Assembly: GCF_022201045.2 (NCBI RefSeq)
Contig: NC_068562.1
Coordinates: 6,368,001-6,432,000 of the forward strand
Source of the DNA: Citrus sinensis
Lineage: Eukaryota; Streptophyta; Magnoliopsida; Sapindales; Rutaceae
Length of the DNA stretch: 64,000 nucleotides
Direction of reading: 5' to 3'
Shown here piece by piece: positions 1,123 to 56,539 of the stretch. A model generated the notes under the pieces. The model searched no databases. It worked only from the letters and a program-made list of their open reading frames with translations, and was not told where the DNA came from. The position numbers and the translations under genes are program-made. The number at the start of each line of letters is the position of its first letter. The stretch's first letter is position 1.

Positions 1123-1941
1123 AATTTTTTACGAACTTAATTTTCTTGTGATAAAATTGGGCCATTGGGCGTTACTATTTATTCCCAATCAGTTTTGTTT
1201 GTTCTTTTTAGACAAGTTGAGAATAATTGGAAGCGCTTAACTTACTAATTTTGTTTGGGTATCCGTTGCTGTATCATTTTATGAAAAGGAAACCAACACT
1301 AACGAAATAATGGATCCTCACTATAATTGTCTGCGGACATATTTTCTAAACTTATTTTCATCGAATAGTACATGTAAAAAATTTCTTTTATTGGCAATTT
1401 TACTAACAATAAAATTTACGTTGGATGAACTGTATAGTTTGAATGAGTCACCTCGTTATCTAATTTACTCAGTCTTTAACAAAATCTCCAATGTGGTTTT
1501 ATCATTCATGCAGCTTAATTTATCACTAATTACATGATTATGGAAGGTTTTCATTTTAATTAGTTCATGAATTGTCTCTAATATTATATAGAAATTTATG
1601 AACTTAACTTTTACTCAAAATTTTGCTCATATATAGCTAAAGATTGTGCCAAGCTTATATGCTTGAAGAGACTATAAAATATTTTTTAACACCTCCATTA
1701 TGCGCGGGTCAACACTTTTATCTAAATTTTATCACGTGAAAGAGGGTGTGTGACACGACCCGCCCCGACTTATATGTCGGATCTGAGGCGAATCATGCGA
1801 ACTAATAGGTAAAACTTTTGACACAAATTTAATTCGTGAAAAAATATATAAAAATGGTCTATGATATAAGCACATAACAACTTATGTGTCTTAAAAAATA
1901 TACATTCAAAATTTAAACAGTTTATGTCTTACTATACATAC

Positions 1942-1943
<2 letters not shown>

Positions 1944-1992
<49 letters not shown>
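1944..1992. repeat. (CA)n(TA)n microsatellite, unit B
   Basis: About 37 bases of alternating AC followed by about 12 of TA. The same tract in unit C is about 6 bases longer and accounts for the whole length difference between the units over this interval. Confidence 0.95.
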
Positions 1993-1999
1993 AGCAACA

Positions 2000-3650
2000 T
2001 AAACGTGCTCAAAATACAAGTTATTCAGTAATGGGTCTCGTGGCCCAACCTTAATTGACTAGAACTGATTTGCACGAAATCCTGCAGAATCATGGGAGAA
2101 AAAGGAATAAATAGAAAAATAATGAGCTTGCAATTCAGTGAGTGGATATAATTTATATATAGAAAAATTAAGTAGTATACTAGGGTATGTACATAATAAT
2201 ATGACATAACTCCACACTGAATGTAATACATCAGCAAACATGGAATTCATATATACATACATGTCAAAACTGCACCAAACAGTACCCAGGAGAAATAACT
2301 CTCAATACTCGTCGGGATCATTATCGTAAGAGTAGAGCAGAGAAAAAATCTCTCAATACGTGGCAAAATTTAACTACATCGCACGGTAAAGTAACCTAAC
2401 TTTCAATATGCATGCGCAGAGCTTATGAGAAAGGGTACATATATGATGACTGGCAAACACAGCTCATGACTCAATCAAACATATAATATGCGTACATGTA
2501 ATTGTAACATGATATTAAATCATAATATTGAACATTAATGATTCATAAAATACATAATAGTAATAATAATATCCACTCACATATCCTATTTCACTCCGGG
2601 ATTCGTTGGGATTCTTGTGGGTTCTTCAATTCTCGAGTTCCTCCTAAAATATAAAATTCAAAAATTAACTATTAAAACTAATATAAAAACTTATACATAT
2701 CATGTAAATTGTAACATAACTGCTCAAACTTTATAAATTTATTACCTATTAGTTTATTGGATATTAATCTAATTGTCCAATTATATTTCCTGTAACTTTT
2801 CCTTTCAATTTCTCTTTTTAACTTATTTCCCTCTCTTGGGCTCCTAATTCTTTTTCCCCTTTTCTCTTCTTTTTTCCCTTTTTCCTTACTCTCGGCTTCC
2901 CTCTTTTCTTTTATTTCTTTTCTTTTCTCTTCTCCTTTTCTCTCGGTTTTTCTTCTTTTTTTCTTCTCTGTCTCACTTCGAAAGTGGATGCAAAATATAT
3001 AATCGCAGTAGTGTCTTTAATATCGTAAAATTGATTCGATAAGTGTTCACTGTGAAGTAGCTTCTATTTCTAGAGCAAGGTGGCGAACACCAGAAGGGGA
3101 TAGTTTAGTTCTCCTTGAAGGTGGTGTGCTCCAAAACTGAAATAGAAGTTAGTGCACCAGATGCCAACATTATTTTGCATGTCATTTACAGAAGGGTTAA
3201 GAGCGACTTGATTAAGGGCAATGCAGCTTTGGAAATTGAGTATTGCTGCAGCCACAGACAGTGCTCAAGCCTGTGTACAAATCATTTACAGTACTTGGAT
3301 TTTACGACTAGCTGGTGGAAGCTGGTCTATATTTAAAAGAACACACCGAGTGGCATTATACGTTTCATTGTTGTTATAGAACTTTGTGAAAAATATATGA
3401 TTTGGAATATAAGAAGAATTCTATCTCTTTGCCTTTATGTTTAAATCACTTGATGTTGCAAGTCAAGAGCATCCGTTCAGCAGGATTTGCGCATTTTACT
3501 TGTGTCTTCATAAAATATTACTATTAATATTATATTTATTGTCAAAAACATAATTTTTTAATTTATGCAGTCAGAAGAGACCAAGGGATGGCTCTTAACT
3601 TTTTCAACCGCTTCCAACCCGGCCCCTAAATTCGTCTTCCAAATCGTTTG
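2000..3650. other. Non-coding part of unit B: AT-rich, then a pyrimidine-rich tract
   Basis: No gene recognised. The segment from 1751 begins TGACACGACCCGCCCCGA, a start resembling dispersed plant repeats, but I could not define its other end or a family. A T/C-rich tract fills about 2780-2960. Around 2990-3340 the composition is less AT-rich, with open frames of about 70 codons that I do not recognise. The stretch is copied with few changes at about 7990-9645. Confidence 0.5.
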
Positions 3651-4526
3651 CAGTTTCAAGATTTTCCAAATCCCTTTCTTCTTCAAGGTTTTGAGTATTA
3701 TGTTGTAATAGATTTTGAAGCGACGTGCGACAAAGAAAGAAATCTTCATCCACAGGGCATAATTGAATTTCCATCCGTGGTGGTGAGTGGTGTAACCGGA
3801 GATATTATAGCATGTTTTCAAACTTATGTGCGGCCAACTTTTGATCCCTTATTGACTGATTTTTGCAAAGAATTGACAGGAATTCAACAGCACCAAGTTG
3901 ACAATGGCGTTACTCTCGGGGAGGCTTTATATTTTCACGACAAATGGCTTTTGCAAATGGGTTTAAGCAACACCAACTTTTCTGTGGTGGCATGGTCAGA
4001 TTGGGACTGTCAGGTAATGCTGGAATCCGAATGCCGAATCAAGAAGATTCAAAAGCCTGCGTATTTCAACCGTTGGATCAACTTGAGGGTTCCAATCAGC
4101 AAGGTTTCTGGCGACATGAGGTGAAATTTGAAAGAGGCTGTTGAGCTTGTTTGGCACGGCCGTGCTCACTGGGGCCTTGATGACTCCATAAACATGGCAA
4201 GATTTCTTGCAGTCATCATGCAGAGGGGATTTAAATTCTCAATTACTAAATCTTTGACGCCGCCGCAAGCAATTACTCAGGATTCTCCGATTACGTCGAA
4301 TCGTCATCATCAGTTTCTTGTGCTGCAGCGTATGTGCACTTTTCAGCATACTTCTCGTAATCCAGCAGAAGTTGAAGAATTTCGGTGTTGCTTCTGTGGA
4401 GCTAAAAGCTTCAAGAAGATAATTCGAAAGCCAGGACCAAAGTGTGGAAGCTTCTTTTTCGGATATGGGAACTTGACGCCTAACAAGGGTGCTAGCTGCA
4501 ATTATTTTCATTCGGCCACCGCTTGA
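3651..4526 (+). pseudogene. ERI1-like DEDDh 3'-5' exonuclease with GRF zinc finger, 5'-truncated, copy B
   Basis: The translation is a plant ERI1-like exonuclease, a family that trims the 3' ends of small or structured RNAs. The exonuclease core starts at VVIDFEATCDKE (catalytic D and E), continues through WSDWDCQVMLE (catalytic D) and RWINLRVP, and ends with GRAHWGLDD (catalytic H and D). A C-terminal GRF zinc finger (about 4380-4515) follows. An in-frame TGA (4122-4124) stands between DMR and NLKEAVEL, where I expect a codon such as Cys, and separates the last catalytic residues from the rest. A few residues (AGLA-like) also seem missing after EAVEL. The third GRF cysteine is Tyr (4464-4466). 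The core runs about 290 codons with no intron, and no N-terminal part with a start is visible. A partial retrocopy is the likeliest explanation, which is inference. Confidence 0.8.
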
Positions 4527-5089
4527 TTATATAATTTACTCAATTTTCAGTTTTGTTTAATGCCTATAATTAATTAATTAATTAAGGTTGGGATGTTAAT
4601 TCTTCAATTACTTAGTGTCAATCAAGACTCTCTCTCGTATTGAGGTGTATTTAATTTATGCAATCTTTCTTTCATTTTCTGTTTAAACTTCAGAAGCATG
4701 CATGTATGCTTTCTACAACTTGATAATTTTGGAGAGAATATATATTTTGACTGATTATTTAACTTCCACTATTGACTTTGAGAGAGACTAGACCAATAAG
4801 ACCTTAAATAAAAATAAATAAAGTTAAAAGTGAATTTTTCTAACTTACCCTAAATTTTTTTCACGTGCTTTAACCATTTCATTTTATATATGAAGAAAGT
4901 CACATTGTTAATTATACCATTAATTTCTGAACAAAAATGTACCTATTTTTTGGTGTCTCCTTTTCAAATCATAAGGTACAACCACACAACTAGTTATTGC
5001 AAAAACGAATAATAAAAGACACTTCCGATGTTATTTAGTAATGAGAAGCTAGTAGTACAACTTTATTCAATTGATGATACATATTACTT
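4527..5089. other. Intergenic between exonuclease copy and neprosin B 3' end
   Basis: AT-rich and non-coding. It lies downstream of both genes, which are convergent. A direct run of TTAATTAA-type repeats sits near 4570. Nothing else was recognised. The copy at 10522-11084 has the same length. Confidence 0.6.
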
Positions 5090-5862
5090 TCATTGGCAAT
5101 TTGCTGAATATCCAGGACCTCCAAAATAAAAGAAGACACCAAACTTGTTATCTTTTCCTGTACGTAAATCGTAGCAGGGGGGTCTTGTCACAAAAGGTTC
5201 AAGATTTTCAGGATCTTTGACATTGTTACCTTCATCAAAGTATCCAAGTTTTGTGAAAAAACTAGCTTTCCCGTAGGCTTCATTAGGAAAATGGCCACTT
5301 CCCATTTGAGTTGAAGTGTGATGACCATTAGGTTGGTTATTGACTATCTCTCCTCCCCAAGATATAGCATCAGAAGTGCCGGCTAAATGTGTAAAGATGG
5401 AGCTTGGCCAATACCCTACTAACTGGTCTTGCACTTGCAGCCACCAATTTCCATCATTATTATTGAACTGATCAAAGAAGAAAAACAAAATCAATGCAGT
5501 CAGTCTCTCCCTAATGGTATTGGGGTTTAATTTAATCCACAGTTAACATTCCTTTTTGCGTTGTCCTAGTAAAATTAACAGACATGAGAATGAGAATAAC
5601 TGTTACTACGTGCCTTATGTATGACAATGGATATGTCACGTTGCTCCCCACCATACTTCGAAACAGGTTCTATAGACCCACCGAGGGCTATATTTTTGTT
5701 TGTTTGCACAAAACCAGGGCAATCAAGATTGTAGCAACCTGTGCTTTGGTAGCCATCACTCTAACAACCATAAGAAAACGTGTTAGCAAAAATTTAGAAG
5801 CAATTAATCTAGTCATATTCTCTCCCCCTCTCTCTCTCTCTCTATATATATATACACACACA

Positions 5863-5893
<31 letters not shown>

Positions 5894-7111
5894 GTAGTAA
5901 TTTAAGAAAATTTTCAATTTTTAATATGGAACTGAGGAATGATCATATCTACTTACAGTCCAATATATGAACAATCTTGTTTTCTTCTCGCCATTGTTAA
6001 CCTGGAATCATGAATGATTTCCTTAGTAAATATTCAGACAGTACTTGAATTTTTGGTCAATTCATATTTAGTTTTAACTATTAAAATCGTATGAAGTCTG
6101 AATTCCGCTTTCACGAGGAAATTTAATTAATAATTCCACACGTGCTATAAATATGCAATATGTATGCATGTTTCATTGGCTGAAGCTTAATTACCGTCCA
6201 TCCAGCCTCTAAAGAATTCAACTTATTTCCATCGCCGGCCAAAACCCAAATTTGAGCGATGCTGAGTTCTTCGAAATTTGTTAGAGGGTTCCAAACGTTG
6301 ATTGTAGCACGAGCACCATAGTAATTCCCATCAACTGCAGAAACTTGTGCATACTGATAATCATATATGTTTTTAGTATTTTTTTTCATACAAAAGGAAG
6401 ATGAAATTATTAGATACAATTAAAAGATCTTAAAAGTATAATTAAGTGAAAAATCATTATAATTAAAGTTAAATTCTGACCTCATGATTAGAGGGATTAT
6501 TGACATCGTTTAGCTGTGCTACTTTCTTGTGCAAAAATGCTGGGTAGCTGCGTCGACTATGATTAAAATTCTGTGTTCTTCTCAGTAGTGGGACAGTTCC
6601 TTCGGGGCATTCGCCATTCTTATGCCAACTTTGAAAGAGCATATTCGGATTGTTTTCTGCTTCATCGATTCCTCTTGATTGTGCATGGGGTTTGATCTAT
6701 GAATTTAAAAGACAAAGTGTTATTTTTCGAACCATTTAATTAGAAATCTTCAATGCAAATTTTATGTACTAACCTGTACGGTGTGATTTTTCAGCAGTGG
6801 GTGATTAAAAGCAGGTTGTTTTCTTATGTCCACACAGTCAATCACATCACCATCGTCACTCTGCAAAAATATAACTCAATTTGAGCTTTGAAAATTTATA
6901 ACCTTAAACAAAAATTGAAAAAAAAAATGTTAATAACCTCAATGGTTTTGACTGTTCCCTCATGCATGGGCAACTCTCTATTTTTCATGAATTGATCAAC
7001 TCCTCTTCCATCAACAGATGTTATCAACATGTGAGAAAGTAGTATTAAGAAAATTTTGTAGTCTCCAAGTTTGACACTCTTATCATTCCAATCAGCCATG
7101 TTGAACTTCAA
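5090..7111 (-). CDS. Neprosin (DUF239) family secreted glutamic peptidase, copy B
   Basis: Seven exons (minus): 6938-7111, 6774-6860, 6481-6696, 6195-6353, 5957-6001, 5614-5760, 5090-5467. Their phases join and give about 401 residues, normal for the family. Order: hydrophobic leader (IFLILLSHMLITS), activation peptide (about 50-90, DVIDCVDIRKQPAF), then the neprosin catalytic domain. Domain signatures are WTSDGYQSTGCYNLDCPGF, GGSIEPVSKYGG, NWWLQ, LVGYWPSSIF, WGGEIVN, HHTSTQMGSG and the C-terminal FYFGGPGYSANC. The two glutamates catalytic in Nepenthes neprosin probably correspond to E in SLEAGW and E in WGGEIV. Intron 6 appears to start with GC (AAG/GCACGT) rather than GT; otherwise splice sites are ordinary. 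Neprosin is a secreted prolyl endopeptidase in Nepenthes; the substrate of this protein is unknown. I saw no coding lesion. Confidence 0.86.
5822..5893. repeat. (TC)n(TA)n(CA)n compound microsatellite in neprosin B intron 5
   Basis: Alternating TC, TA and CA tracts. The counterpart in unit C (about 11818-11876) has a different make-up, with extra C and a GCGCGC end, and explains most of a 14-base offset change between the units. Confidence 0.93.
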
Positions 7112-7930
7112 AATTTTTTACGAACTTAATTTTCTTGTGATAAAATTGGGCCATTTCGTGTTCCTATTTATTCCCAATCAGTTTTGTTTGTTCTTTTTAG
7201 ACAAGTTGAGAATAATTGGAAGCGCTTAACTTACTAATTTTGTTTGGGTATCCGTTGCTGTATCATTTTATGAAAAGGAAGCCAACACTAACGAAATAAT
7301 GGATCCTCACTATAATTGTCTGCGGACATATTTTCTAAACTTATTTTCATCGAATAGTACATGTAAAAAATTTCTTTTATTGGCAATTTTACTAACAATA
7401 AAATTTACGTTGGATGAACTGTATAGTTTGAATGAGTCACCTCGTTATCTAATTTACTCAGTCTTTAACAAAATCTCCAACGTGGTTTTATCATTCATGC
7501 AGCTTAATTTATCACTAATTACATGATTATGGAAGATTTTCATTTTAATTAGTTCATGAATTGTCTCTGATATTATATAGAAATTTATGAACTTAACTTT
7601 TACTCAAAATTTTGCTCATATATAGCTAAAGATTGTGCCAAGCTTATATGCTTGAAGAGACTATAAAATATTTTTTAACACCTCCATTATGCGCGGGTCA
7701 ACACTTTTATCTAAATTTTATCACGTGAAAGAGGGTGTGTGACACGACCCGCCCCGACTTATATGTCGGATCTGAGGCGAATCATGCGAACTAATAGGTA
7801 AAACTTTTGACACAAATTTAATTCGTGAAAAAATATATAAAAATGGTCTATGATATAAGCACATAACAACTTATGTGTCTTAAAAAATATACATTCAAAA
7901 TTTAAACAGTTTATGTCTTACTATACATAC

Positions 7931-7932
<2 letters not shown>

Positions 7933-7987
<55 letters not shown>
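7933..7987. repeat. (CA)n(TA)n microsatellite, unit C
   Basis: Longer allele of the tract at 1944-1992; otherwise the flanks are the same. Confidence 0.95.
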
Positions 7988-9645
7988 AGCAACATAAACG
8001 TGCTCAAAATACAAGTTATTCAGTAATGGGTCTCGTGGCCCAACCTTAATTGACTAGAACTGATTTGCACGAAATCCTGCAGAATCATGGGAGAAAAAGG
8101 AATAAATAGAAAAATAATGAGCTTGCAACTCAGTGAGTGGATATAATTTATATATAGAAAAATTAAGTAGTATACTAGGGTATGTACATAATAATATGAC
8201 ATAACTCCACACTGAATGTAATACATCAGCAAACATGGAATTCATATATACATACATGTCAAAACTGCACCAAACAGTACCCAGGAGAAATAACTCTCAA
8301 TACTCGTCGGGATCATTATCGTACGAGTAGAGCAGAGAAAAAATCTCTCAATACGTGGCAAAATTTAACTACATCGCACGGTAAAGTAACCTAACTTTCA
8401 ATATGCATGCGCAGAGCTTATGAGAAAGGGTACATATATGATGACTGGCAAACACAGCTCATGACTCAATCAAACATATAATATGCGTACATGTAATTGT
8501 AACATGATATTAAATCATAATATTGAACATTAATGATTCATAAAATACATAATAGTAATAATAATATCCACTCACATATCCTATTTCACTCCGGGATTCG
8601 TTGGGGTTCTTGTGGGTTCTTCAATTCTCGAGTTCCTCCTAAAATACAAAATTCAAAAATTAACTATTAGAACTAATATAAAAACTTATACATATCATGT
8701 AAATTGTAACATAATTGCTCAAACTTTATAAATTTATTACCTATTAGTTTATTGGATATTAATCTAATTGTCCAATTATATTTCCTGTAACTTTTCCTTT
8801 CAATTTCTCTTTTTAACTTATTTCCCTCTCTTGGGCTCCTAATTCTTTTTCCCCTTTTCTCTTCTTTTTTCCCTTTTTCCTTACTCTCGGCTTCCCTCTT
8901 TTCTTTTATTTCTTTTCTTTTCTCTTCTCCTTTTCTCTCGGTTTTTCTTCTTTTTTTCTTCTCTGTCTCACTTCGAAAGTGGATGCAAAATATATAATCG
9001 CAGTAGTGTCTTTAATATCGTAAAATTGATTCGATAAGTGTTCACTGTGAAGTAGCTTCTATTTCTAGAGCAAGGTGGCGAACACCAGAAGGGGATAGTT
9101 TAGTTCTCCTTGAAGGTGGTGTGCTCCAAAACTGAAATAGAAGTTAGTGCACCAGATGCCAACATTATTTTACATGTCATTTACAGAAGGGTTAAGAGCG
9201 ACTTGATTAAGGGCAATGCAGCTTTGGAAATTGAGTATTGCTGCAGCCACAGACAGTGCTCAAGCCTGTGTACAAATCATTTACAGTACTTGGATTTTAC
9301 GACTAGCTGGTGGAAGCTGGTCTATATTTAAAAGAACACACCGAGTGGCATTATACGTTTCATTGTTGTTATAGAACTTTGTGAAAAATATATGATTTGG
9401 AATATAAGAAGAATTCTATCTCTTTGCCTTTATGTTTAAATCACTTGATGTTGCAAGTCAAGAGCATCCGTTCAGCAGGATTTGTGCATTTTACTTGTGT
9501 CTTCATAAAATATTACTATTAATATTATATTTATTGTCAAAAACATAATTTTTTAATTTATGCAGTCAGAAGAGACCAAGGGATGGCTCTTAACTTTTTC
9601 AACCGCTTCCAACCCGGCCCCTAAATTCGTCTTCCAAATCGTTTG

Positions 9646-10521
9646 CAGTTTCAAGATTTTCCAAATCCCTTTCTTCTTCAAGGTTTTGAGTATTATGTTG
9701 TAATAGATTTTGAAGCGACGTGCGACAAAGAAAGAAATCTTCATCCACAGGGCATAATTGAATTTCCATCCGTGGTGGTGAGTGGTGTAACCGGAGATAT
9801 TATAGCATGTTTTCAAACTTATGTGCGGCCAACTTTTGATCCCTTATTGACTGATTTTTGCAAAGAATTGACAGGAATTCAACAGCACCAAGTTGACAAT
9901 GGCGTTACTCTCGGGGAGGCTTTATATTTTCACGACAAATGGCTTTTGCAAATGGGTTTAAGCAACACCAACTTTTCTGTGGTGGCATGGTCAGATTGGG
10001 ACTGTCAGGTAATGCTGGAATCCGAATGCCGAATCAAGAAGATTCAAAAGCCTGCGTATTTCAACCGTTGGATCAACTTGAGGGTTCCAATCAGCAAGGT
10101 TTTTGCCGACATGAGGTGAAATTTGAAAGAGGCTGTTGAGCTTGTTTGGCACGGCCGTGCTCACTGGGGCCTTGATGACTCCATAAACATGGCAAGATTT
10201 CTTGCAGTCATCATGCAGAGGGGATTTAAATTCTCAATTACTAAATCTTTGACGCCGCCGCAAGCAATTACTCAGGATTCTCCGATTACGTCGAATCGTC
10301 ATCATCAGTTTCTTGTGCTGCAGCGTATGTGCACTTTTCAGCATACTTCTCGTAATCCAGCAGAAGTTGAAGAATTTCGGTGTTGCTTCTGTGGAGCTAA
10401 AAGCTTCAAGAAGATAATTCGAAAGCCAGGACCAAAGTGTGGAAGCTTCTTTTTCGGATGTGGGAACTTGACGCCTAACAAGGGTGCTAGCTGCAATTAT
10501 TTTCATTCGGCCACCGCTTGA
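9646..10521 (+). pseudogene. ERI1-like DEDDh exonuclease with GRF zinc finger, 5'-truncated, copy C
   Basis: Sister of the copy at 3651-4526, with the same open stretch, the same in-frame TGA (10117-10119, after DMR) and the same missing start. Differences are few. VFADMR replaces VSGDMR, and the GRF finger keeps its third cysteine (FFFGCGN, TGT at 10459-10461), which copy B has lost. Since the TGA is shared it predates the duplication. A shorter product ending before the catalytic H-D pair should be inactive. Translation starting downstream of the stop would give only the finger and a fragment. It lies convergent to neprosin copy C, 560 bases away. Confidence 0.8.
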
Positions 10522-11084
10522 TTATATAATTTACTCAATTTTCAGTTTTGTTTAATGCCTATAATTAATTAATTAATTAAGGTTGGGATGTTAATTCTTC
10601 AATTACTTAGTGTCAATCAAGACTCTCTCTCGTATTGAGGTGTATTTAATTTATGCAATCTTTCTTTCATTTTCTGTTTAAACTTCAGAAGCATGCATGT
10701 ATGCTTTCTACAACTTGATAATTTTGGAGAGAATATATATTTTGACTGATTATTTAACTTCCACTATTGACTTTGAGAGAGACTAGACCAATAAGACCTT
10801 AAATAAAAATAAATAAAGTTAAAAGTGAATTTTTCTAACTTACCCTAAATTTTTTTCACGTGCTTTAACCATTTCATTTTATATATGAAGAAAGTCACAT
10901 TGTTAATTATACCATTAATTTCTGAACAAAAATGTACCTATTTTTTGGTGTCTCCTTTTCAAATCATAAGGTACAACCACACAACTAGTTATTGCAAAAA
11001 CGAATAATAAAAGACACTTCCGATGTTATTTAGTAATGAGAAGCTAGTAGTACAACTTTATTCAATTGATGATACATATTACTT

Positions 11085-13095
11085 TCATTGGCAATTTGCT
11101 GAATATCCAGGACCTCCAAAATAAAAGAAGACACCAAACTTGTTATCTTTTCCTGTACGTAAATCGTAGCAGGGGGGTCTTGTCACAAAAGGTTCAAGAT
11201 TTTCAGGATCTTTGACATTGTTACCTTCATCAAAGTATCCAAGTTTTGTGAAAAAACTAGCTTTCCCGTAGGCTTCATTAGGAAAATGGCCACTTCCCAT
11301 TTGAGTTGAAGTGTGATGACCATTAGGTTGGTTATTGACTATCTCTCCTCCCCAAGATATAGCATCAGAAGTGCCGGCTAAATGTGTAAAGATGGAGCTT
11401 GGCCAATACCCTACTAACTGGTCTTGCACTTGCAGCCACCAATTTCCATCATTATTATTGAACTGATCAAAGAAGAAAAACAAAATCAATGCAGTCAGTC
11501 TCTCCCTAATGGTATTGGGGTTTAATTTAATCCACAGTTAACATTCCTTTTTGCGTTGTCCTAGTAAAATTAACAGACATGAGAATGAGAATAACTGTTA
11601 CTACGTGCCTTATGTATGACAATGGATATGTCACGTTGCTCCCCACCATACTTCGAAACAGGTTCTATAGACCCACCGAGGGCTATATTTTTGTTTGTTT
11701 GCACAAAACCAGGGCAATCAAGATTGTAGCAACCTGTGCTTTGGTAGCCATCACTCTAACAACCATAAGAAAACGTGTTAGCAAAAATTTATAAGCAATT
11801 AATCTAGTCATATTCTCTCCCCCCCTCTCTCTCTCTCTCTATATACACACACACACACACACACACACGCGCGCGTAGTAATTTAAGAAAATTTTCAATT
11901 TTTAATATGGAACTGAGGAATGATCATATCTACTTACAGTCCAATATATGAACAATCTTGTTTTCTTCTCGCCATTGTTAACCTGGAATCATGAATGATT
12001 TCCTTAGTAAACATTCAGACACTACTTGAATTTTTGGTCAATTCATATTTAGTTTTAACTATTAAAATCGTATGAAGTTTGAACTCCGCTTTCACTAGGA
12101 AATTTAATTAATAATTCCACACGTGCTATAAATATGCAATCTGTATACATGTTTCATTGGCTGAAGCTTAATTACCGTCCATCCAGCCTCTAAAGAATTC
12201 AACTCATTTCCATCGCCGGCCAAAACCCAAATTTGAGCGATGCTGAGTTCTCCGAAATTTGTTAGAGGGTTCCAAACGTTGATTGTAGCACGAGCACCAT
12301 AGTAATTCCCATCAACTGCAGAAACTTGTGCATACTGATAATCATATATGTTTTTAGTATTTTTTTTCATACAAAAGGAAGATGAAATTATTAGAAACAA
12401 TTAAAAGATCTTAAAAGTATAATTAAGTGAAAAATCATTATAATTAAAGTTAAATTTTGACCTCATGATTAGAGGGATTATTGACATCGTTTAGTTGTGC
12501 TACTTTCTTGTGCAAAAATGCTGGGTAGCTGCGTCGACTATGATTAAAATTCTGTGTTCTTCTCAGTAGTGGGACAGTTCCTTCGGGGCATTCGCCATTC
12601 TTATGCCAACTTTGAAAGAGCATATTCGGATTGTTTTCTGCTTCATCGATTCCTCTTGATTGTGCATGGGGTTTTATCTATGAATTTAAAAGACAAACTT
12701 TTATTTTTCGAACCATTTAATTAGAAATCTTTAATGCAAATTTTATGTACTAACCTGTACGGTGTGATTTTTCAGCAGTGGGTGATTAAAAGCAGGTTGT
12801 TTTCTTATGTCCACACAGTCAATCACATCACCATCTTCACTCTGCAAAAATATAACTCAATTTGAGCTTTGAAAATTTATAACCTTAAACAAAAATTGAA
12901 AAAAAAAAGAATGTTAATAACCTCAATGGTTTTGACTGTTCCCTCGTGCATGGGCAACTCTCTTTTTTTCATGAATTGATCAACTCCTCTTCCATCAACA
13001 AATGTTATCAACGTGTGAGAAAGCAGTATTAAGAAAAATTTGTAGTCTCCAAGTTTGATACTCTTATCATTCCAATCAGCCATGTTGAACTTCAA
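11085..13095 (-). CDS. Neprosin (DUF239) family secreted glutamic peptidase, copy C
   Basis: Exons (minus): 12922-13095, 12755-12841, 12462-12677, 12176-12334, 11938-11982, 11609-11755, 11085-11462. Each has the same length as in copy B, and the joined product is about 401 residues. It has the same leader, activation peptide and catalytic-domain signatures, with the C-terminal domain from NWWLQ to the end identical to copy B. Changes cluster in exons 1 and 2 (for example KSIKLGDYKFFLILL, SEDGDVIDC). The intron 1 donor GTTATT is intact, and the GC-type intron 6 start is shared with copy B. Upstream DNA is diverged from that of copies A and B, so regulation could differ. I saw no coding lesion. 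Confidence 0.86.
11818..11876. repeat. (TC)n(CA)n microsatellite in neprosin C intron 5
   Basis: Shorter counterpart of 5822-5893, ending in alternating GC. Confidence 0.92.
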
Positions 13096-13876
13096 TTTTT
13101 TTTGCGAACTTAATTTTCTTGTGATAAAATTGGGCCATTGGGCGTTACTATTTATTCACCAATCGGTTTTGTTTGTTCTTTATAGATAAGTTAAGAATAA
13201 TTGGAAGTGCTTAACTTACTAATTATGCTTGGATGTCCGTCGCTGTATCATTTTATAAAAAGGAAACCAACACTAACAAAATAATGGATCCTCACTGTAA
13301 ATGTATGTAGACATTCTAAACTTATTTTCATCCAATGGCTCGTGTAAAAATTTTCTTTTATTGGTAATTTTACTAACAATAAAATTTACGTTGGATGAAC
13401 TGTATAGTTTGAATGCGTCACCTTGTTATCTAATTTGCTCGGCCTTTAACAAAATCTCCAATGTGGTTTCATCATTCATCCATCTTAATTTATCACTAAT
13501 GACATGGTTATGGAAGGTTTCTATTTTAATTAACTCATGAATTGGCTCTAGTATTATATAGAAATTTATGAACTCAACTTTTACTCAAAAGTTTGCTCAT
13601 ATATAGCTAAAGATTGTGCCAAGCTTAAATAATTGAAGAGACTATAAAAATGTTTCTTTTACACCTCCATTAAGTGTAGGTCGACAATTTTACCTAAATT
13701 TTATCACGTGAAAGAGGGTGTGTTTGCCTCACTTGAGCATTAGTCATTTAGTTGACTTTGATACTCTATATATAGTAATGCTCATCATTACTTGGTTTTA
13801 ATGCTACCCCATGAGTTTAAAACTTGTATTAAAATATAGATCGTCATTACTAGAATCCAAGTAAGAGACAATTATG

Positions 13877-47477: not shown

Positions 47478-48495
47478 CCACTAGTAGGTTTTTTGGGGAA
47501 ATTTTTATTTATTTTAGTGTAGATAGCAGGCAAGACTATATTTCTTAATTTTAATAGGACTCTTACGAGTATTATTTCTATATACTATATATAAAAATAA
47601 TCAAGTTACTAATAACTGGATGAAAGCAAAAAATAACTCCTCAACGTACGAAATTATAGAGGATCTCGTTTAAAATCAACCAGTTCCATCGAATTGAATA
47701 TGATTGTATTTATGATAGCATTTACTATATTAGAAATATCAATCAATCCAATTATTGCAATTGTTCAGGATACCCTTTTTCAGATTCTAGTTAGTTGGTT
47801 GGTAGCGACAAATGATTTTAATTTAGTCGAGTTATTTGATCTTGGGCGAATGAAAAAGGAAAGGGACAAGATTATATAAGCTGATTATTGCTTGGGCTAC
47901 TAAGAAGTCATCTCCAATGTAAAAAGGAAAAAGTTGAGAAGTCTCATGTGATGGGGAAATTACAATTTACACGTCATTTTATTTGCTTGGTCCTGGATAG
48001 TCAATTAATTTCACACGTACGCGTCCCGCATTTATAACTATAATTTTATATAGCACCGTAATGCTAAAATTAATAATATTTGATACGATCAAATTACTTA
48101 ATAAGAATACAATACAAATAAATAGATACAAATCGTTAAATTTAACACAATTAATTAAATAGACAAGGTCTGAACGATTTTTTTCATGTCAGATTAGAGT
48201 TAAGTTCTTGACCGATTTTAATCGAATAATGACACAATTATATTTTTTATTCTAAATTAATTTATAAATTTTTGTTTTGAAAATTCAAATATTGAACATA
48301 AATATCTCTCTTTTTGTTGATTGGAAGAATGAACATATATACAATGTTTCATTTATGAAATTTTATAGATTTAAAACTTCAATAATGTAAATTTGTAAAA
48401 TATTGATAGACATTCATATATATATTGGGTAATTTATTTAATTTTCATACCAGTTTAAAATTTCAATATTTTGACATAATTATTAAATAAATCGT
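47478..48495. other. AT-rich spacer between the MITE and the large hAT element
   Basis: No gene recognised. A 61-codon frame at 47694-47879 has no known relatives that I can name. Confidence 0.45.
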
Positions 48496-50712
48496 GTTTA
48501 AAATAAGGGTGGGCAAATTCGGTTTGGATCGGTTTGAGACATATTATCAAACCGATCCAAACTTATCGGTTTGAAATATTCCCAAACCGATATAGACATA
48601 AATTTTTTATAAACCGAACCGATCCAAACCGACTGGATCGGTTTGGATCTTCGGTTTGAGTTATAATAACAGAATATATACTGGTTTTATATTTGTTCAC
48701 AATAGAATAATTTTAATAAACAAAATCTCTCCATGTTCAATCAAAACAAACTTACAAAATTTGTTCACAACATAATACATTATAATAAAAAAGTTCTCCC
48801 CATGTTCAATCAAAACAAACTCACAAAATTAAAATAAATTTGAACAACATTTAACAATCAAAATATTGTGCATTTGTCGTCAAAACTTATGCCCAATTGC
48901 TTTTCATTTGTCAAAATCTGCATAAAATGGCAAATATAATTAGTTAGATTACTTAACTTAGAATATAATGTAATTATACAATATTTAAAGCATAGTTACC
49001 TTGCTCCACAGACGCACATAATTCCAAATCACTGAAGGATGATGATAATGCTTCTACATCAAACTTCCTAATATATTTTTCATCCATACCAGATGCTTTA
49101 AGCCATTGTTGACTGCATATCAAAGCCTCCACCATTGTAGGGGTTAATGAACTTCGAAATGCATCAACTACACGACCTCCGGTACTAAAAGCCGATTCAA
49201 AAGCCACAGTAGATACAGGAATTGCTAACACATCCTTTGCAATTTGTGACAAAGTCCTAAACCTGGCACTATTTGCACTCCACCAGCCCAAAACATCAAA
49301 CTGATCATCATTTTCATCCTCACTAGGTTCGAACAAATACCTCTCAACCTCATTTTTCAAATCAATGGAATTTTTCTGCACTTTTAACTGCTTATATTGA
49401 GTCTTTGTATTAATAAATTAGTAGTCCTTGCCACTTTTCCTTCTTAAACCCGCATCAATTGCCCAAACATCATTACTAGATTGGCTACCACCACCAGAAG
49501 TAGATTCCACAGGACAATAGGTCTTATATAGCTATGAAAATAAATTGAAGTAAATATGAATACATTTAAATTAAAAAAAAATAAAATAACTATTATTATA
49601 ACTAAATTTGTTTTGAAAGTTTAAGAATATACCTTCAAAAGTAGCTTCTTAATGTTTGATGTAATTTCTTCCACTTTCTCAGGATTATGCAATTGTTCAA
49701 AGCAAAACGACACATAATTCAATTTGTACCTTAGATAAAAAAAGAAAAAAAGAAATTAGAGTAAATAATTAGCACAATAGATTTTATCATAAAAAATAAA
49801 AAATTCAAATGAAATAACAGATTTTTACCTTGGATCAAGCACCACAGCAATGATCAATAGGTGGTTGATGGTGTCCACAGAACCCCAATACCTGTCACAC
49901 TTTATTTTCATTTTTGCAGCCATTTTACTGAGAAGTACGTCCTCATTTTCAATATACAAATGCAATTGGGTTTGAATGGTGCAAAGATGATGAAAATACA
50001 AGTTAGATGTCACTGATAATGAAGCACTAAAATCAACTGTAACATCATTGAAAATTTTCAAAAACTCAATAAATATTTCAGCATTTTTCCAATCTTCAGC
50101 AGTGGGTGGCCTGATCTGTTCTGCCTTCCTCTCATTGAAAAAACTCATATATGGTCCATCATGTTCCTCTTCTTCGAGCCTTTCAAAAGCTTTCTGAAAG
50201 TGTATGGCTCTCGACAACATAGTGTAGGTAGAATTCCATCTAGTGGGCACATCATATGCTAAAAGTCCTTTATTTTCAATTTTCTCTCTCTCAACACATG
50301 ATTTAAATTTATGCAACCTCAAACCAGAAGACCTCACATACATAATTGCATTGCGAATGCTAGCAATTGAGTCATGCATCTCTTTAAGCCCTTCAGTCAC
50401 AATCAAATTAACAATATGGGCACAACAACGTAAATGTAAACAATCTCCATCTAAAATCATTGCATCGCCCTTCCAATTTTTCAACTTTTTTTTCAAATAA
50501 TTAACAGCAACATCATTAGCACTCGCATTATCAACTGTAATAGTCATCACTTTTTCTATATCCCAATCAAGCAAGCATTTTTCAATGAGCTTGCCAATTG
50601 AATCCCCTTTGTGGCTTGTTATTTGGAAAAAATTCAAAATCCTCTTCTGTAATTTCCAATTATGATCAACCCAATGGGCTGTCACAACCATATAATTAAA
50701 ATTTTGTATGGA

Positions 50713-50720
50713 AGTCCAAG
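50713..50720. repeat. Target-site duplication, left of inner hAT element
   Basis: AGTCCAAG, identical to 54435-54442. Eight bases is diagnostic of hAT insertion. Confidence 0.95.
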
Positions 50721-51104
50721 TAGGGGTGGGCATATTTTAACCGAACCGATCCAAACCGACGGTTTGGATCGGTTTCATTAATAAAAATACTGGTTTCGGT
50801 TTATTGGATTATAAACCGATATCACTCGGTTTGGATTTTAGTTTGGAAAGATTTCAAATGGATTCAAACCGATCCAATCCAAAATTTACACTTTCATACG
50901 TACACAAAGGAAATGTACACTTACATACACAATAGCATATCTCTTACTATAAAAACAAAAAAGATAAACCTAATTTTCCAAACACTCACGCCTCCGCCTC
51001 CACCTCCAGACTCCAGTGCTTCCTATTCCTAATTCCTATCATTCTCTAACTCTCTCAATCTCAAATTCTCAATCACTCATTCTTAAGTCTCCGGAGGTAT
51101 GTTT

Positions 51105-51530
51105 TGATTTTATTTTTCTTGCTAAGATTTTATTTCATTTTAGTCAAAAGTAAAAATAGATTTTGGTATAATTGATGATAATTTATTTGATTAATTATTT
51201 TTCTTGCTACGATTTTATTTCATTTTAGTCAAAGTTAAAATGGATTTAGGTATAATTGATGATAATTTATTTGATTAATTATTTTTCTTGCTACGATTTT
51301 ATTTCATTTAATTATTTTTCTTGATTTTATTTTTCTTGCTACGATTTTATTTCATTTTAGCCTAAGTTAAAATGGATTTAGGTATAATTGATGATAATTT
51401 ATTTGATTAATTATTTTTCTTGGTTTTATTTTTCTTGCTGAGATTTTATTTCATTTTAGTCCAAGTTAAAATGGATTTAGGTATAATACTATAATTGATG
51501 ATAATTTATTTGATTAATTAATTCCATAAC
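51105..51530. repeat. Imperfect tandem repeats upstream of the inner transposase
   Basis: About four degenerate copies of an approximately 80-bp AT-rich unit (ATGGATTTAGGTATAATTGA ... TTTTCTTGCTACGATTTT). The same array occurs reversed at about 55120-55550 in the outer element. Confidence 0.8.
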
Positions 51531-51568
51531 TATTTTTTTAATCTTTATTAATTGTAGAAGCTCTCAAC

Positions 51569-54024
51569 ATGGAAGATAATTCTAATATGAATGATATCAT
51601 GGAAGATGGAGAAACATTGATGGATGATTTTCTGGAACCTAAAAGTAAGAAATCTAAAATAGGGGGTGGTCGTCTTCATGACAGTGAAAGGGGTTCAAAA
51701 GCTTGGCCTCATCATATCAAAGATAAAGTGAATAAGACATGTAAGTGCAAATATTGTGGGAAGCAGTATAAGTGTGATAGTAAGTTTAATGAGACTTCTA
51801 ATTTGTGGACTCACTTAAGGAACAATGTGAAAAATATTGGGCTACTTTAGATGATGAGACTCAAACTAAACTAGCAAGCTTCCGTGTTAAGAAAAAAAAG
51901 TCTAATATGGCAAGTGGTAGTGGCACTGGGAATACTGTGTATGGTAGTGGGTTGGGGCTTGCTGGAAAGTTTGATAAGGAGGATTGTAGGAAGACTGTAG
52001 CTATGTATTTTATTCTTAATGAGGTTCCATTTAGGGAAGTAGAGTCTTATGGGTTTCATCTTTTGTGCGATAAACTTTGTCCTAGATTTGGCCCTCCTTC
52101 TAGGAGAACACTTGTTAGAGATATATATCAATTGTATTTAGCTAAGAAGACAGCATTGAAAAATATGTTTATTGCAAGTAAGTATAGATTTTCTATTACT
52201 ACAGACACTTGGACTTCCATACAAAATTTTAATTATATGGTTGTGACAGCCCATTAGGTTGATCATAATTGGAAATTACAGAAGAGGATTTTGAATTTTT
52301 TTCCAAATAACAAGCCACAAAGGGGATTCAATTGGCAAGCTCATTGAAAAATGCTTGCTTGATTGGGGTATAGAAAAAGTGATGACTGTTACAGTTGATA
52401 ATGCGAGTGCTAATGATGTTGCTGTTAATTATTTGAAAAAAAAGTTGAAAAATTGGAAGGGCGATGCAATGATTTTAGATGGAGATTGTTTACATTTACG
52501 TTGTTGTGCCCATATTGTTAATTTGATTGTGACTGAAGGGCTTAAAGAGATGCATGACTCAATTGCTAGCATTCGCAATGCAATTATGTATGTGAGGTCT
52601 TCTGGTTTGAGGTTGCATAAATTTAAATCATGTGTTGAGAGAGAGAAAATTGAAAATAAAGGACTTTTAGCATATGATGTGCCCACTAGATGGAATTCTA
52701 CCTACACTATGTTGTCGAGAGCCATACACTTTCAGAAAGCTTTTGAAAGGCTCGAAGAAGAGGAACATGATGGACCATATATGAGTTTTTTCAATGAGAG
52801 GAAGGCAGAACATATCAGGCCACCCACTGCTGAAGATTGGAAAAATGCTGAAATATTTATTGAGTTTTTGAAATTTTTCAATGATGTTACAGTTGATTTT
52901 AGTGCTTCATTATCAGTGACATCTAACTTGTATTTTCATCATCTTTGCACCATTCAAACCCAATTGCATTTGTATATTGAAAATGAGGACGTGCTTCTCA
53001 GTAAAATGGCTGCAAAAATGAAAATAAAGTGTGACAAGTATTGGGGTTCTGTGGACACCATCAATCACCTATTGATCATTGCTGTGGTGCTTGATCCAAG
53101 GTAAAAATCTGTTATTTCATTTGAATTTTTTATTTTTTATGATAAAATCTATTGTGCTAATTATTTACTCTAATTTCTTTTTTTTTTTTTAATCTAAGGT
53201 ACAAATTGAATTATGTGTTGTTTTGCTTTGAACAATTGCATAATCCTGAGAAAGTGGAAGAAATTACATCAAACATTAAGAAGCTACTTTTGAAGGTATA
53301 TTCTTAAACTTTCAAAACAAATTTAGTTATAATAATAGTTATTTTATTTTTTTTTAATTTAAATGTATTCATATTTACTTCAATTTATTTTCATAGCTAT
53401 ATAAGACCTATTGTCCTGTGGAATCTACTTCTGGTGGTGGTAGCCAATCTAGTAATGATGTTTGGGCAATTGATGCGGGTTTAAGAAGGAAAAGTGGCAA
53501 GGACTACTAATTTATTAATACAAAGACTCAATATAAGCAGTTAAAAGTGCAGAAAAATTCCATTGATTTGAAAAATGAGGTTGAGAGGTATTTGTTCGAA
53601 CCTAGTGAGGATGAAAATGATGATCAGTTTGATGTTTTGGGCTGGTGGAGTGCAAATAGTGCCAGGTTTAGGACTTTGTCACAAATTGCAAAGGATGTGT
53701 TAGCAATTCCTGTATCTACTGTGGCTTTTGAATCGGCTTTTAGTACCGGAGGTCGTGTAGTTGATGCATTTCGAAGTTCATTAACCCCTACAATGGTGGA
53801 GGCTTTGATATGCAGTCAACAATGGCTTAAAGCATCTGGTATGGATGAAAAATATATTAGGAAGTTTGATGTAGAAGCATTATCATCATCCTTCAGTGAT
53901 TTGGAATTATGTGCGTCTGTGGAGCAAGGTAACTATGCTTTAAATATTGTATAATTACATTATATTCTAAGTTAAGTAATCTAACTAATTATATTTGCCA
54001 TTTTATGCAGATTTTGACAAATGA
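51569..54024 (+). pseudogene. hAT transposase of the inner element (zf-BED, RICESLEEPER type)
   Basis: Order: acidic N-terminus MEDNSNMNDIMEDGETLMDD, BED finger (CKCKYCGKQYKCDS, THL; 51569-51850), then 51810-52257, the RNase H-like middle 52355-53104, a probable exon at about 53200-53296, a linker, and the C-terminal dimerisation domain 53547-53930. A likely last exon ends DFDK at 54024. Plausible GT..AG introns lie after VVLDPR, after KKLLLK and after SVEQ. Lesions shared with the outer copy: a one-base frame change after the BED histidine, and an in-frame TAA after KSGKDY (53507-53509). Lesions only here: TGG to TAG after VVTAH (52255-52257), and one extra T in a T-run near 52300. This copy cannot make a full transposase. 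Confidence 0.88.
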
Positions 54025-54434
54025 AAAGCAATTGGGCATAAGTTTTGACGACAAATGCACAATATTTTGATTGTTAAATGTTGTTCAAATTTATTTTAAT
54101 TTTGTGAGTTTGTTTTGATTGAACATGGGGAGAACTTTTTTATTATAATGTATTATGTTGTGAACAAATTTTGTAAGTTTGTTTTGATTGAACATGGAGA
54201 GATTTTGTTTATTAAAATTATTCTATTGTGAACAAATATAAAACCAGTATATATTCTGTTATTAGAACTCAAACCGAAGATCCAAACCGATCCAAACTGA
54301 TCCAGTCGGTTTGGATCAGTTCGGTTTATAAAAAATTTATGTCTATATCGGTTTGGGAATATTTCAAACTGATAAGTTTGGATCGGTTTGATAATATGTC
54401 TCAAACCGATCCAAACCGAATTTGCCCACCCCTA

Positions 54435-54442
54435 AGTCCAAG
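54435..54442. repeat. Target-site duplication, right of inner hAT element
   Basis: AGTCCAAG, the partner of 50713-50720. Confidence 0.95.
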
Positions 54443-55946
54443 TGTCTATAGTAATAGAAACTCTATACTTACTTGCAATAAACATATTTTTCAATGCTGC
54501 CTTCTCAGCTAAATACAATTGATATGTATCTCTAACAAGTGTTCTCCTAGAAGGAGGGCCAAATCTAGGACAAAGTTTATCGCACAAAAAATGAAACCCA
54601 TAAGACTCTACTTCCCTAAATAGAACCTCATTAAGAATAAAATACATAGCTACAGTCTTCCTACAATCCTCCTTATCAAACTTTCCAGCAAGACCCAACC
54701 CACTACCATACACAGTATTCCCAGTGCCACTACCACTTGCCATATTAGACTTTTTTTTCTTAACACGGAAGCTTGCTAGTTTAGTTTGAGTCTCATCATC
54801 TAAAGTAGCCCAATATTTTTCACATTGTTCCTTAAGTGAGTCCACAAATTAGAAGTCTCATTAAACTTACTATCACACTTATACTGCTTCCCACAATATT
54901 TGCACTTACATGTCTTATTCACTTTATCTTTGATATGATGAGGCCAAGCTTTTGAACCCCTTTCACTGTCATGAAGACGACCACCCCCTATTTTAGATTT
55001 CTTACTTTTAGGTTCCAGAAAATCATCCATCAATGTTTCTCCATCTTTCATGATATCATTCATATTAGAATTATCTTCCATGTTGAGAGCTTCTACAATT
55101 AATAAAGATTAAAAAAATAGTTATGGAATTAATTAATCAAATAAATTATCATCAATTATAGTATTATACCTAAATCCATTTTAACTTGGACTAAAATGAA
55201 ATAAAATCACAGCAAGAAAAATAAAACCAAGAAAAATAATTAATCAAATAAATTATCATCAATTATACCTAAATCCATTTTAACTTAGGCTAAAATGAAA
55301 TAAAATCGTAGCAAGAAAAATAAAATCAAGAAAAATAATTAAATGAAATAAAATCGTAGCAAGAAAAATAATTAATCAAATAAATTATCATCAATTATAC
55401 CTAAATCCATTTTAACTTTGACTAAAATGAAATAAAATCGTAGCAAGAAAAATAATTAATCAAATAAATTATCATCAATTATACCAAAATCTATTTTTAC
55501 TTTTAACTAAAATGAAATAAAATCTTAGCAAGAAAAATAAAATCAAAACATACCTCAGGAGACTTGAGAATGAGTGATTGAGAATTTGAGATTGAGAGAG
55601 TTAGAGAATGATAGGAATTAGGAATAGGAAGCACTGGAGTCTGGAGGTGGAGGTAGAGGCGTGAGTGTTTGGAAAATTAGGTTTATCTTTTTGTTTTTAT
55701 AGTAAGAGATATGCTATTGTGTATGTAAGTGTACATTTCCTTTGTGTACGTATGAAAGTGTAAATTTTGGATTGAATCGGTTTGAATCCATTTGAAATCT
55801 TTCCAAACCAAAATCCAAACCGAGTGATATCAGTTTATAATCCAATAAACCGAAACCAGTATTTTTATTAATGAAACCGATCCAAACCGACCTAAACCGT
55901 CGGTTTGGATCGGTTGGGTTAAAATATGCCCACCCCTAGTTTAAAA

Positions 55947-56539
55947 CGTCTTAGATTTGACATAACATGAAACTCACACAACATGAACATAATCTAATGA
56001 TCTGTTTTGCCAGCCAACATCTGTTGTTTTGGGTGGCCACCATTGGTTCATTGCTACCACTAATTAGACAAGCAAATGCAATGATACTGGGTATGCAACT
56101 TGAGTGACTTTTCATATGATGAATGTTGGAAAATTAAATCCTAAAGACGTTGGTTTTTCGGCTTTGATTTTTTTTTCTTGCCAATAAAGAACCACCAACA
56201 TTTTGATGTAATAATTCATGAATTTCTATTTTTTCTTTCCACCCAATTTTTTACTTGTGAAAACGGGGCTTAAATCAGAAGCACGTGGCTGATCGCTAGG
56301 CAAAGAGAGGTAGAGAACAAGGACGCAATTCTTTTCTAGCCAAAATTTTGCCTTCAATGCCACGAATATCACCATATATCTAATGCAGCATAGGCTGACC
56401 GACAAAATTGTGATCTCTTTACTTTTAAATCTAAAAATAAACCCCCAAAAGAAAAAAAAAAAAAGTAACGAAAACAAGTTTTTAGCGTTTTAATCGGCAT
56501 AAATCAAGCACCACAGCACCCTCTCAACTCCGACGGCAT
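55947..56539. other. Intergenic spacer
   Basis: AT-rich and non-coding. An A-rich tract lies at 56452-56464. No gene recognised. Confidence 0.5.

What the first reader, a model, noticed from the sequence alone, without database searches (positions are those of the whole stretch)
48496..55946. A hAT transposon inserted into the transposase gene of its near-identical sibling
Both elements have perfect 8-bp target duplications (GTTTAAAA outside, AGTCCAAG inside), near-equal length (3713 and 3714 bp) and opposite orientation. The result is a 7.4-kb imperfect palindrome-like structure of two family members. The high identity and exact duplications indicate recent activity. Such paired inverted copies could fold into hairpin RNA and feed silencing of the family.
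Basis: seen in the sequence. Interest (0 to 1): 0.7.

Follow-up and report, generated by a model that had tools for sequence, protein, structure and literature searches.

The report
hAT transposon nested inside its twin
A plant jumping gene landed in reverse orientation inside a sister copy of itself, giving a structure laid out like maize's chromosome-breaking "double Ds"; both copies have broken transposase genes, so it is a neat natural case of a known kind and not a new kind of element.

Summary
A 3,714-bp hAT element (50721-54434) sits inside a 3,713-bp sister (48504-50720 + 54443-55938), in opposite orientation, with perfect 8-bp duplications at both levels. The copies differ by 33 substitutions and 5 indels (99.1%). 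Related repeats elsewhere in the genome run uninterrupted across the outer insertion point. Of 62 two-ended family members recognised in the genome, this is the only nest. The copies are each other's closest relatives among 7 compared. They alone share a one-base deletion and a stop codon in the transposase gene, so their ancestor probably moved with transposase supplied from elsewhere. A 1,045-bp stretch is identical between them (P about 1e-4), best read as later gene conversion.

The nest is not palindrome-like: its order is B' A B A', so its two possible hairpins exclude each other. "Recent" means roughly 0.3-3 million years on recalled rates. The closest known structure is maize double Ds, with the same end geometry in a different hAT family. 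It is a new member of a known kind. Chromosome breakage and small-RNA output could not be tested.

The parts
48496..48503 (.). left target duplication of the outer element, GTTTAAAA
   Evidence: empty-site relatives
48504..50720 (-). outer hAT element, 3' part (B'), ending in the left AGTCCAAG copy
48504..48515 (+). 3' terminal repeat of the outer element, TAAGGGTGGGCA, one change from TAGGGGTGGGCA; the change is private to this copy among five full-length copies
48664..49708 (-). stretch identical to 53220-54264 of the inner copy (1,045 bp)
49418..49420 (-). stop codon in the outer transposase gene shared with the inner copy
50713..50720 (.). left target duplication of the inner element, AGTCCAAG, inside the outer transposase gene
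50721..54434 (+). inner hAT element, complete (A then B)
51097..51557 (+). probable leader intron of the inner copy, holding direct repeats of 67-100% identity
   Evidence: splice sites read by eye; repeats
51819..51820 (+). site of the one-base deletion (between these bases) shared with the outer copy (there between 54830 and 54831); shifts the transposase frame
51569..53954 (+). disabled transposase gene of the inner copy; probable introns 53101-53198 and 53296-53396
   Evidence: splice sites read by eye
53220..54264 (+). stretch identical to 48664-49708 of the outer copy (1,045 bp), probable gene conversion
53508..53510 (+). stop codon in the inner transposase gene shared with the outer copy
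54435..54442 (.). right target duplication of the inner element, AGTCCAAG
54443..55938 (-). outer hAT element, 5' part (A')
55939..55946 (.). right target duplication of the outer element, GTTTAAAA

Best explanation
A nested pair of sister hAT transposons. Shown: one element inserted at GTTTAAAA into an older interspersed repeat, and a sister copy inserted in inverted orientation at AGTCCAAG inside the first one's transposase gene. Shown by comparison: among 7 copies the two form a clade and alone share a one-base deletion and a stop codon that disable the transposase gene. Inferred: their ancestor already could not make transposase (firmest for the deletion, which lies outside the homogenised stretch), so the second jump used transposase from another element. 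Inferred: that jump was local, most simply a copy leaving one sister chromatid and landing in the unmoved copy on the other, because random landing is very unlikely and no third copy of the clade was found. Inferred: the two 3' parts later exchanged sequence, leaving 1,045 identical bp. The product has two pairs of directly oriented 5' and 3' ends (48504 with 50721; 54434 with 55938), the geometry that lets Ac/Ds undergo sister-chromatid transposition and break chromosomes. Whether it ever did so here is unknown; at present it is probably inert. The confidence given is for the nested sister insertion with outside transposase.
For: Boundaries, duplications, orientation. Empty-site relatives. 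hAT domains on separate pieces. Tree: inner+outer 100/99; 87/83 on the A arm and 93/94 on the B arm before the identical stretch, with C3c left out. Deletion and stop present in 2 of 7 aligned copies, inner and outer only. All five full-length copies compared have an interrupted transposase frame. Identical stretch: longest-gap P 6.5e-5 (uniform) and 1.8e-4 (drawn from the density of other variable sites); 0 of 30 changes private to inner or outer fall in it, against 11 of 51 private to the three other copies and 9 of 21 pair-versus-rest sites. One nest among 62 two-ended members, where uniform landing predicts 0.0066 of any kind and 1.2e-4 among five full-length copies.
Against: One nest in one assembly; no reads were available, and polishing or collapse could make near-identical arms falsely identical. 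Both copies could have come from a third defective copy since lost. The shared stop lies in the identical stretch and could have been spread by conversion; the A arms could also have converted. Neither part-tree support reaches the tool's star threshold. At 5 of the 21 pair-versus-rest sites the pair keeps the outgroup state, 4 of them inside the stretch, so a conversion donor of another lineage is not excluded. Chance figures are after the fact, assume uniform landing, and rest on counts that are lower bounds.
Confidence: 0.8

Rival explanations
1. Two separate arrivals: both copies came, at different times, from a third defective copy elsewhere that has since been lost or is missing from the assembly, and the second landed in the first by chance or by target preference.
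For: The shared deletion and stop only require a common ancestor, not direct descent of one from the other; cut-and-paste donors can vanish by excision (established for hAT elements, recalled).
Against: No other copy of this clade among the full-length copies compared; random landing predicts 1.2e-4 nests for five full-length copies.
Confidence: 0.25
2. Assembly artefact: two separate loci, or two haplotypes, were joined into one nest.
For: Near-identical inverted copies are hard to assemble; one 1,045-bp stretch is exactly identical; no reads were available.
Against: 33 substitutions and 5 indels separate the copies, both levels have exact 8-bp duplications, and empty-site relatives cross the outer junction.
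Confidence: 0.03
3. The nest is a silencing locus: read-through transcription of an arm pair gives hairpin RNA and small RNAs that silence the family in trans, as proposed for Mu killer.
For: Long inverted arms at 99%; a precedent in another superfamily (start of the abstract of PMC3440606 in the listing).
Against: Only one arm pair can form at a time; no RNA data; the share of C:G>T:A changes is no higher than in single copies (21 of 30 against 33 of 51).
Confidence: 0.08
4. The nest is a live chromosome breaker or rearranger, driven by transposase from the related hAT family that still has open frames.
For: Directly oriented end pairs, three of four terminal repeats perfect, same 12-bp ends in the related family.
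Against: Subterminal repeats of the related family differ; transposase only about 61% identical over the compared part; the structure has persisted for about 1% of divergence, which is not expected of a frequent breaker.
Confidence: 0.06

Closest known systems
Maize double Ds (sh-m5933 type; Ac/Ds family, hAT superfamily)
   Same: A non-autonomous hAT element inserted in inverted orientation inside a near-identical copy (this layout of double Ds is recalled), giving directly oriented 5'/3' end pairs. [quoted passage not shown] nesting is rarer for Ds, probably because nested Ds break chromosomes and are selected against; no double Ds was detected in B73.
   Different: Another family: ends TAGGGGTGGGCA and not C/TAGGGATGAAA; 3.7-kb elements with a near-complete but disabled transposase gene; copies about 1% diverged; one terminal repeat mutated; no breakage shown.
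Mu killer of maize (start of abstract of PMC3440606 seen)
   Same: Neighbouring inverted copies of a transposase gene that could give hairpin RNA.
   Different: Mu killer is a partial inverted duplication of a MuDR element; here two complete hAT elements, each with its own target duplication, interleaved, with no silencing evidence.
Autointegration of Sleeping Beauty and piggyBac (passages of PMC3952818)
   Same: A transposon that lands in its own sequence.
   Different: Autointegration of one excised molecule gives deletion or inversion circles; here two complete copies are present, so the target was a second copy.

Membership tests
hAT superfamily | 8-bp target-site duplications | tested here: met
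   perfect in both nested copies and in three other full-length copies; the two older relatives on C3 do not show perfect ones
hAT superfamily | short terminal inverted repeats | tested here: met
   TAGGGGTGGGCA at 3 of 4 ends of the nest, one mismatch at the fourth
hAT superfamily | transposase with BED finger, RNase-H-like domain and hAT dimerisation region | tested here: met
   zf-BED 3e-7, hAT-like_RNase-H 1.7e-17, Dimer_Tnp_hAT 1.5e-29, on three of four pieces of the outer copy; the fourth matched nothing
Ac/Ds family of maize (double Ds proper) | C/TAGGGATGAAA ends (as given in a passage of PMC3260210) | tested here: not met
   ends are TAGGGGTGGGCA
double-Ds-like architecture | element inside a near-identical copy in inverted orientation, with directly oriented 5' and 3' ends close together | tested here: met
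   ends 3'(+), 5'(+), 3'(-), 5'(-) at 48504, 50721, 54434, 55938
double-Ds-like architecture | breaks chromosomes when transposase is present | not testable with these tools
   needs plants, transposase supply and cytology
autonomous hAT element | intact transposase frame | tested here: not met
   shared deletion and stop in both copies; a further stop and a T-run length change in the inner copy, the latter also seen in the C5 copy
hairpin silencer of the Mu killer kind | transcript across both arms and arm-derived small RNAs | not testable with these tools
   no RNA data held

The most novel reading that the evidence does not exclude
The nest is a natural chromosome-rearranging locus of the double-Ds kind outside maize that can still respond: transposase from a related hAT family with open frames in the same genome acts on its directly oriented end pairs and produces breaks, inverted duplications or deletions around this site.
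Probability: 0.06. Interest if true: 0.65.

Novelty: new member of a known kind. Interest (0 to 1): 0.35.

Why it matters
Nested hAT pairs of this geometry are described as rare, probably because they break chromosomes (passage of PMC3260210). A natural one that has lasted for about 1% of divergence suggests the arrangement is tolerated once the family's transposase is gone or silent. It also records two readable events: a jump by a copy that could probably not make its own transposase, and later sequence exchange between the nested copies. It is a clean worked case rather than a new mechanism.

Tried and rejected
Palindrome reading: rejected on layout and on 27% ungapped self-complement identity. 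Chance repeat: rejected on length, exact duplications and empty-site relatives. A solved-structure relative of the transposase was sought with a 508-aa frame of the C9 copy: 0 of 177,635 distinct sequences matched at E 0.001. Supply of transposase by the related family with open frames stays open: same 12-bp ends, other subterminal repeats. One of five fetched loci of that search (L070) is not a close copy and gave no end pair, and L067 is rearranged, so ends and duplications were found in 3 of 5.

Literature: searches. No title or abstract start in those listings named such a nest in this family; the library lacks most subscription papers. I saw only listings or passages (PMC3744419; PMC3260210; PMC8225341; PMC1978519, a reference-list line; PMC3952818; PMC3440606 start of abstract), no whole paper. 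Recalled and not from a call: the inverted layout of maize double Ds, loss of a donor copy by excision, local and sister-chromatid jumping of Ac, and the substitution rates. The organism was not identified; nine contigs of 25-52 Mb plus two small ones would fit Citrus (recalled, not tested).

Left out of counts: 10 lone ends and one rearranged pair; columns with a gap in any of the five full-length copies; C3c in the part-trees. One of the 21 pair-versus-rest sites (position 721) also differs between inner and outer. A 3,544-bp member on C5 had no match in the scored list and was not examined.

Full report
Observation. The window holds two complete hAT elements, one inside the other. The outer one runs 48504-50720 and 54443-55938 (3,713 bp, gene on the minus strand), flanked by GTTTAAAA at 48496-48503 and 55939-55946. 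The inner one is 50721-54434 (3,714 bp, gene on the plus strand), flanked by AGTCCAAG at 50713-50720 and 54435-54442. They align with 3,669 matches in 3,702 aligned bases, 33 substitutions (24 transitions, 9 transversions) and 5 indel events.

Layout. Calling the 5' part of the element A and the 3' part B, the order along the plus strand is B' A B A'. This is an interleaved pair of inverted repeats and not a palindrome; ungapped identity of the region to its own reverse complement is 27%. A and A' (about 1.5 kb) can pair around a 2.2-kb loop, or B and B' (about 2.2 kb) around a 1.5-kb loop, but not both.

Reality of the insertions. The outer flanks belong to an interspersed repeat with 362 and 301 first-look candidates in the genome, 40 scored in each search. 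With the two flanks joined over one copy of the 8-bp site, repeats on other chromosomes align through the junction. Four fetched ones (L063-L066) show no gap there, at about 72-77% identity (the name line of the first was cut from the print, L063 by elimination). The inner insertion has its own control, because the inner copy shows the uninterrupted form of the site that it interrupts in the outer copy. The 12-bp end motif alone is no evidence: four matches at up to 2 mismatches, which 10 of 100 shuffles reach.

What the elements are. Of four pieces of the outer copy, three match Pfam: zf-BED (3e-7), hAT-like_RNase-H (1.7e-17) and the hAT dimerisation region (1.5e-29). Ends are TAGGGGTGGGCA at three of four positions and TAAGGGTGGGCA at the outer 3' end, a change private to that copy among the five full-length ones, though the same variant occurs at two other members' 3' ends. 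Subterminal AAACCGA/CCGATCC repeats are present at both ends. Splice sites read by eye: a leader intron 51097-51557 holding the direct repeats, and introns 53101-53198 and 53296-53396.

The family in the genome. The window lies at C7:6368001-6432000 of a 299.7-Mb assembly in 11 contigs. Three further full-length copies, on C9, C3 and C5, are 98.0-98.6% identical to the nested ones and have perfect 8-bp duplications; two older relatives on C3 are about 89% identical and have imperfect ones. Searching the two family-specific ends with up to 2 mismatches gave 69 five-prime and 67 three-prime ends, and none with the reversed control patterns. Pairing them gave 56 simple elements (46 of 0.63-0.80 kb), two clusters of two separate elements each, one rearranged pair, 10 lone ends, and one nest, this one. 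Among 62 two-ended members it is the only nest. Uniform landing predicts 0.0066 nests of any kind and 1.2e-4 among five full-length copies; these figures are after the fact.

Descent. In a tree of 7 copies rooted on the two older ones, inner and outer form a clade at 100/99. Without C3c, the A arm alone gives 87/83 and the B arm before the identical stretch 93/94, both below the tool's star threshold. Of 106 variable gap-free columns among five copies, 21 set inner and outer apart from the rest; at one of these (721) the two also differ from each other, 5 are sites where the pair keeps the outgroup state, and 11 are clear shared changes by my own reading of the listing. Inner and outer alone, 2 of 7 aligned copies, carry a one-base deletion in the BED-finger region (between 51819 and 51820; between 54830 and 54831) and a stop codon (53508-53510; 49418-49420). 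The inner copy has a further stop and a longer T run that shifts the frame; the same run length is seen in the C5 copy. The C9, C3 and C5 copies have interruptions of their own. The pair's ancestor therefore probably could not code for transposase, and the second jump was helped by another element.

Possible helper. Seven loci about 61% identical over the 303-aa query have 721-aa frames without a stop in the matched part. Of five loci fetched, four are close copies (99.8% over about 3.4 kb to L067), three have an end pair with 8-bp duplications and a length of 3,548 bp, one (L067) is rearranged and one (L070) is not a close copy. The L067 protein carries the same three Pfam domains. The first 12 bp of the ends are the same as here, but the subterminal repeats differ. 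It may or may not act on the ends described here.

Exchange between the copies. The 38 differences leave one gap: inner positions 2500-3544 (1,045 bp; window 53220-54264, partner 48664-49708) have none. Placed at random, 38 differences give such a gap with P 6.5e-5; drawn from the density of other variable sites, P 1.8e-4. It is not a cold spot: 11 of 51 changes private to the three other copies and 9 of 21 pair-versus-rest sites fall in it, against 0 of 30 private to inner or outer (Fisher P 0.0056 and 9.7e-5; the pair-versus-rest sites are not clearly denser there than the others' private ones, P 0.086). Gene conversion after nesting fits best. A polishing or collapse artefact, or a donor of another lineage, is not excluded. 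The shared stop lies inside the stretch and the shared deletion outside it.

Age. Divergence is 0.0090 over all and 0.0125 outside the stretch: 0.34-0.48 My at 1.3e-8, 0.64-0.89 My at 7e-9 and 2.0-2.8 My at 2.2e-9 per site per year (rates recalled). If the inner copy came directly from the outer one this dates the nesting; otherwise it is an upper bound.

Mechanism and comparison. The four ends read 3'(+), 5'(+), 3'(-), 5'(-), so each side has a directly oriented 5'/3' pair, 2.2 and 1.5 kb apart. In Ac/Ds, directly oriented 5' and 3' ends of closely linked elements on sister chromatids undergo sister-chromatid transposition, with bridges and breaks (passage of PMC3744419). Chromosome-breaking Ds have multiple ends, and nested Ds are rarer and probably selected against, with no double Ds detected in B73 (passages of PMC3260210). 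On paper the present nest works like double Ds. It is not a Ds, since its ends differ. The right-hand pair (54434, 55938) has perfect terminal repeats; the left-hand pair includes the mutated outer 3' end.

Silencing. 21 of 30 changes private to inner or outer are C:G>T:A, and so are 33 of 51 in three single copies. The bias is shared with single copies and gives no support for a special silencing role of the nest.

Verdict. Real, well delimited, and a new member of a known kind. My odds: nested insertion of sister copies 0.97, outside transposase 0.8, local jump 0.6, gene conversion 0.75, present chromosome-breaking activity 0.06.

Noticed in passing
window 1-7740 and 6017-13723: Large direct tandem duplication, 97.7% identical over 7,752 aligned bases, with duplicated RNase_T exonuclease and neprosin-domain reading frames.
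   Followed up: partly
L067 (G000:C8:23367500-23374500), about 1297-4877: In one copy of the related hAT family the last 163 bp of the 3' end lie inverted directly before the 5' terminal repeat, and the last 130 bp are missing from the far end; possibly a product of aberrant transposition.
   Followed up: partly
G000:C5:25777871-25778608: A short member of the window's hAT family has its 3' and 5' ends in direct orientation on the same strand, the end arrangement linked to aberrant transposition in Ac/Ds.
   Followed up: no
L012 and L013 (G000:C3, near 14.02 and 14.06 Mb): Two older relatives of the family share the same 20-bp flanks about 40 kb apart, so they look like a segmental duplication and not two insertions.
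   Followed up: no
L014-L017 (G000:C2 4.08 Mb, C6 11.99 Mb, C3 37.15 Mb, C4 16.07 Mb): Four deletion derivatives of 1.03-1.16 kb keep the same internal piece (280-282 bp) of the transposase gene at 96.8-97.9% identity, so they probably descend from one deleted element that multiplied.
   Followed up: partly
window 48064-48503 and 55950-56014: The site hit by the outer element lies in a diverged interspersed repeat with hundreds of candidate copies; its type was not determined.
   Followed up: partly
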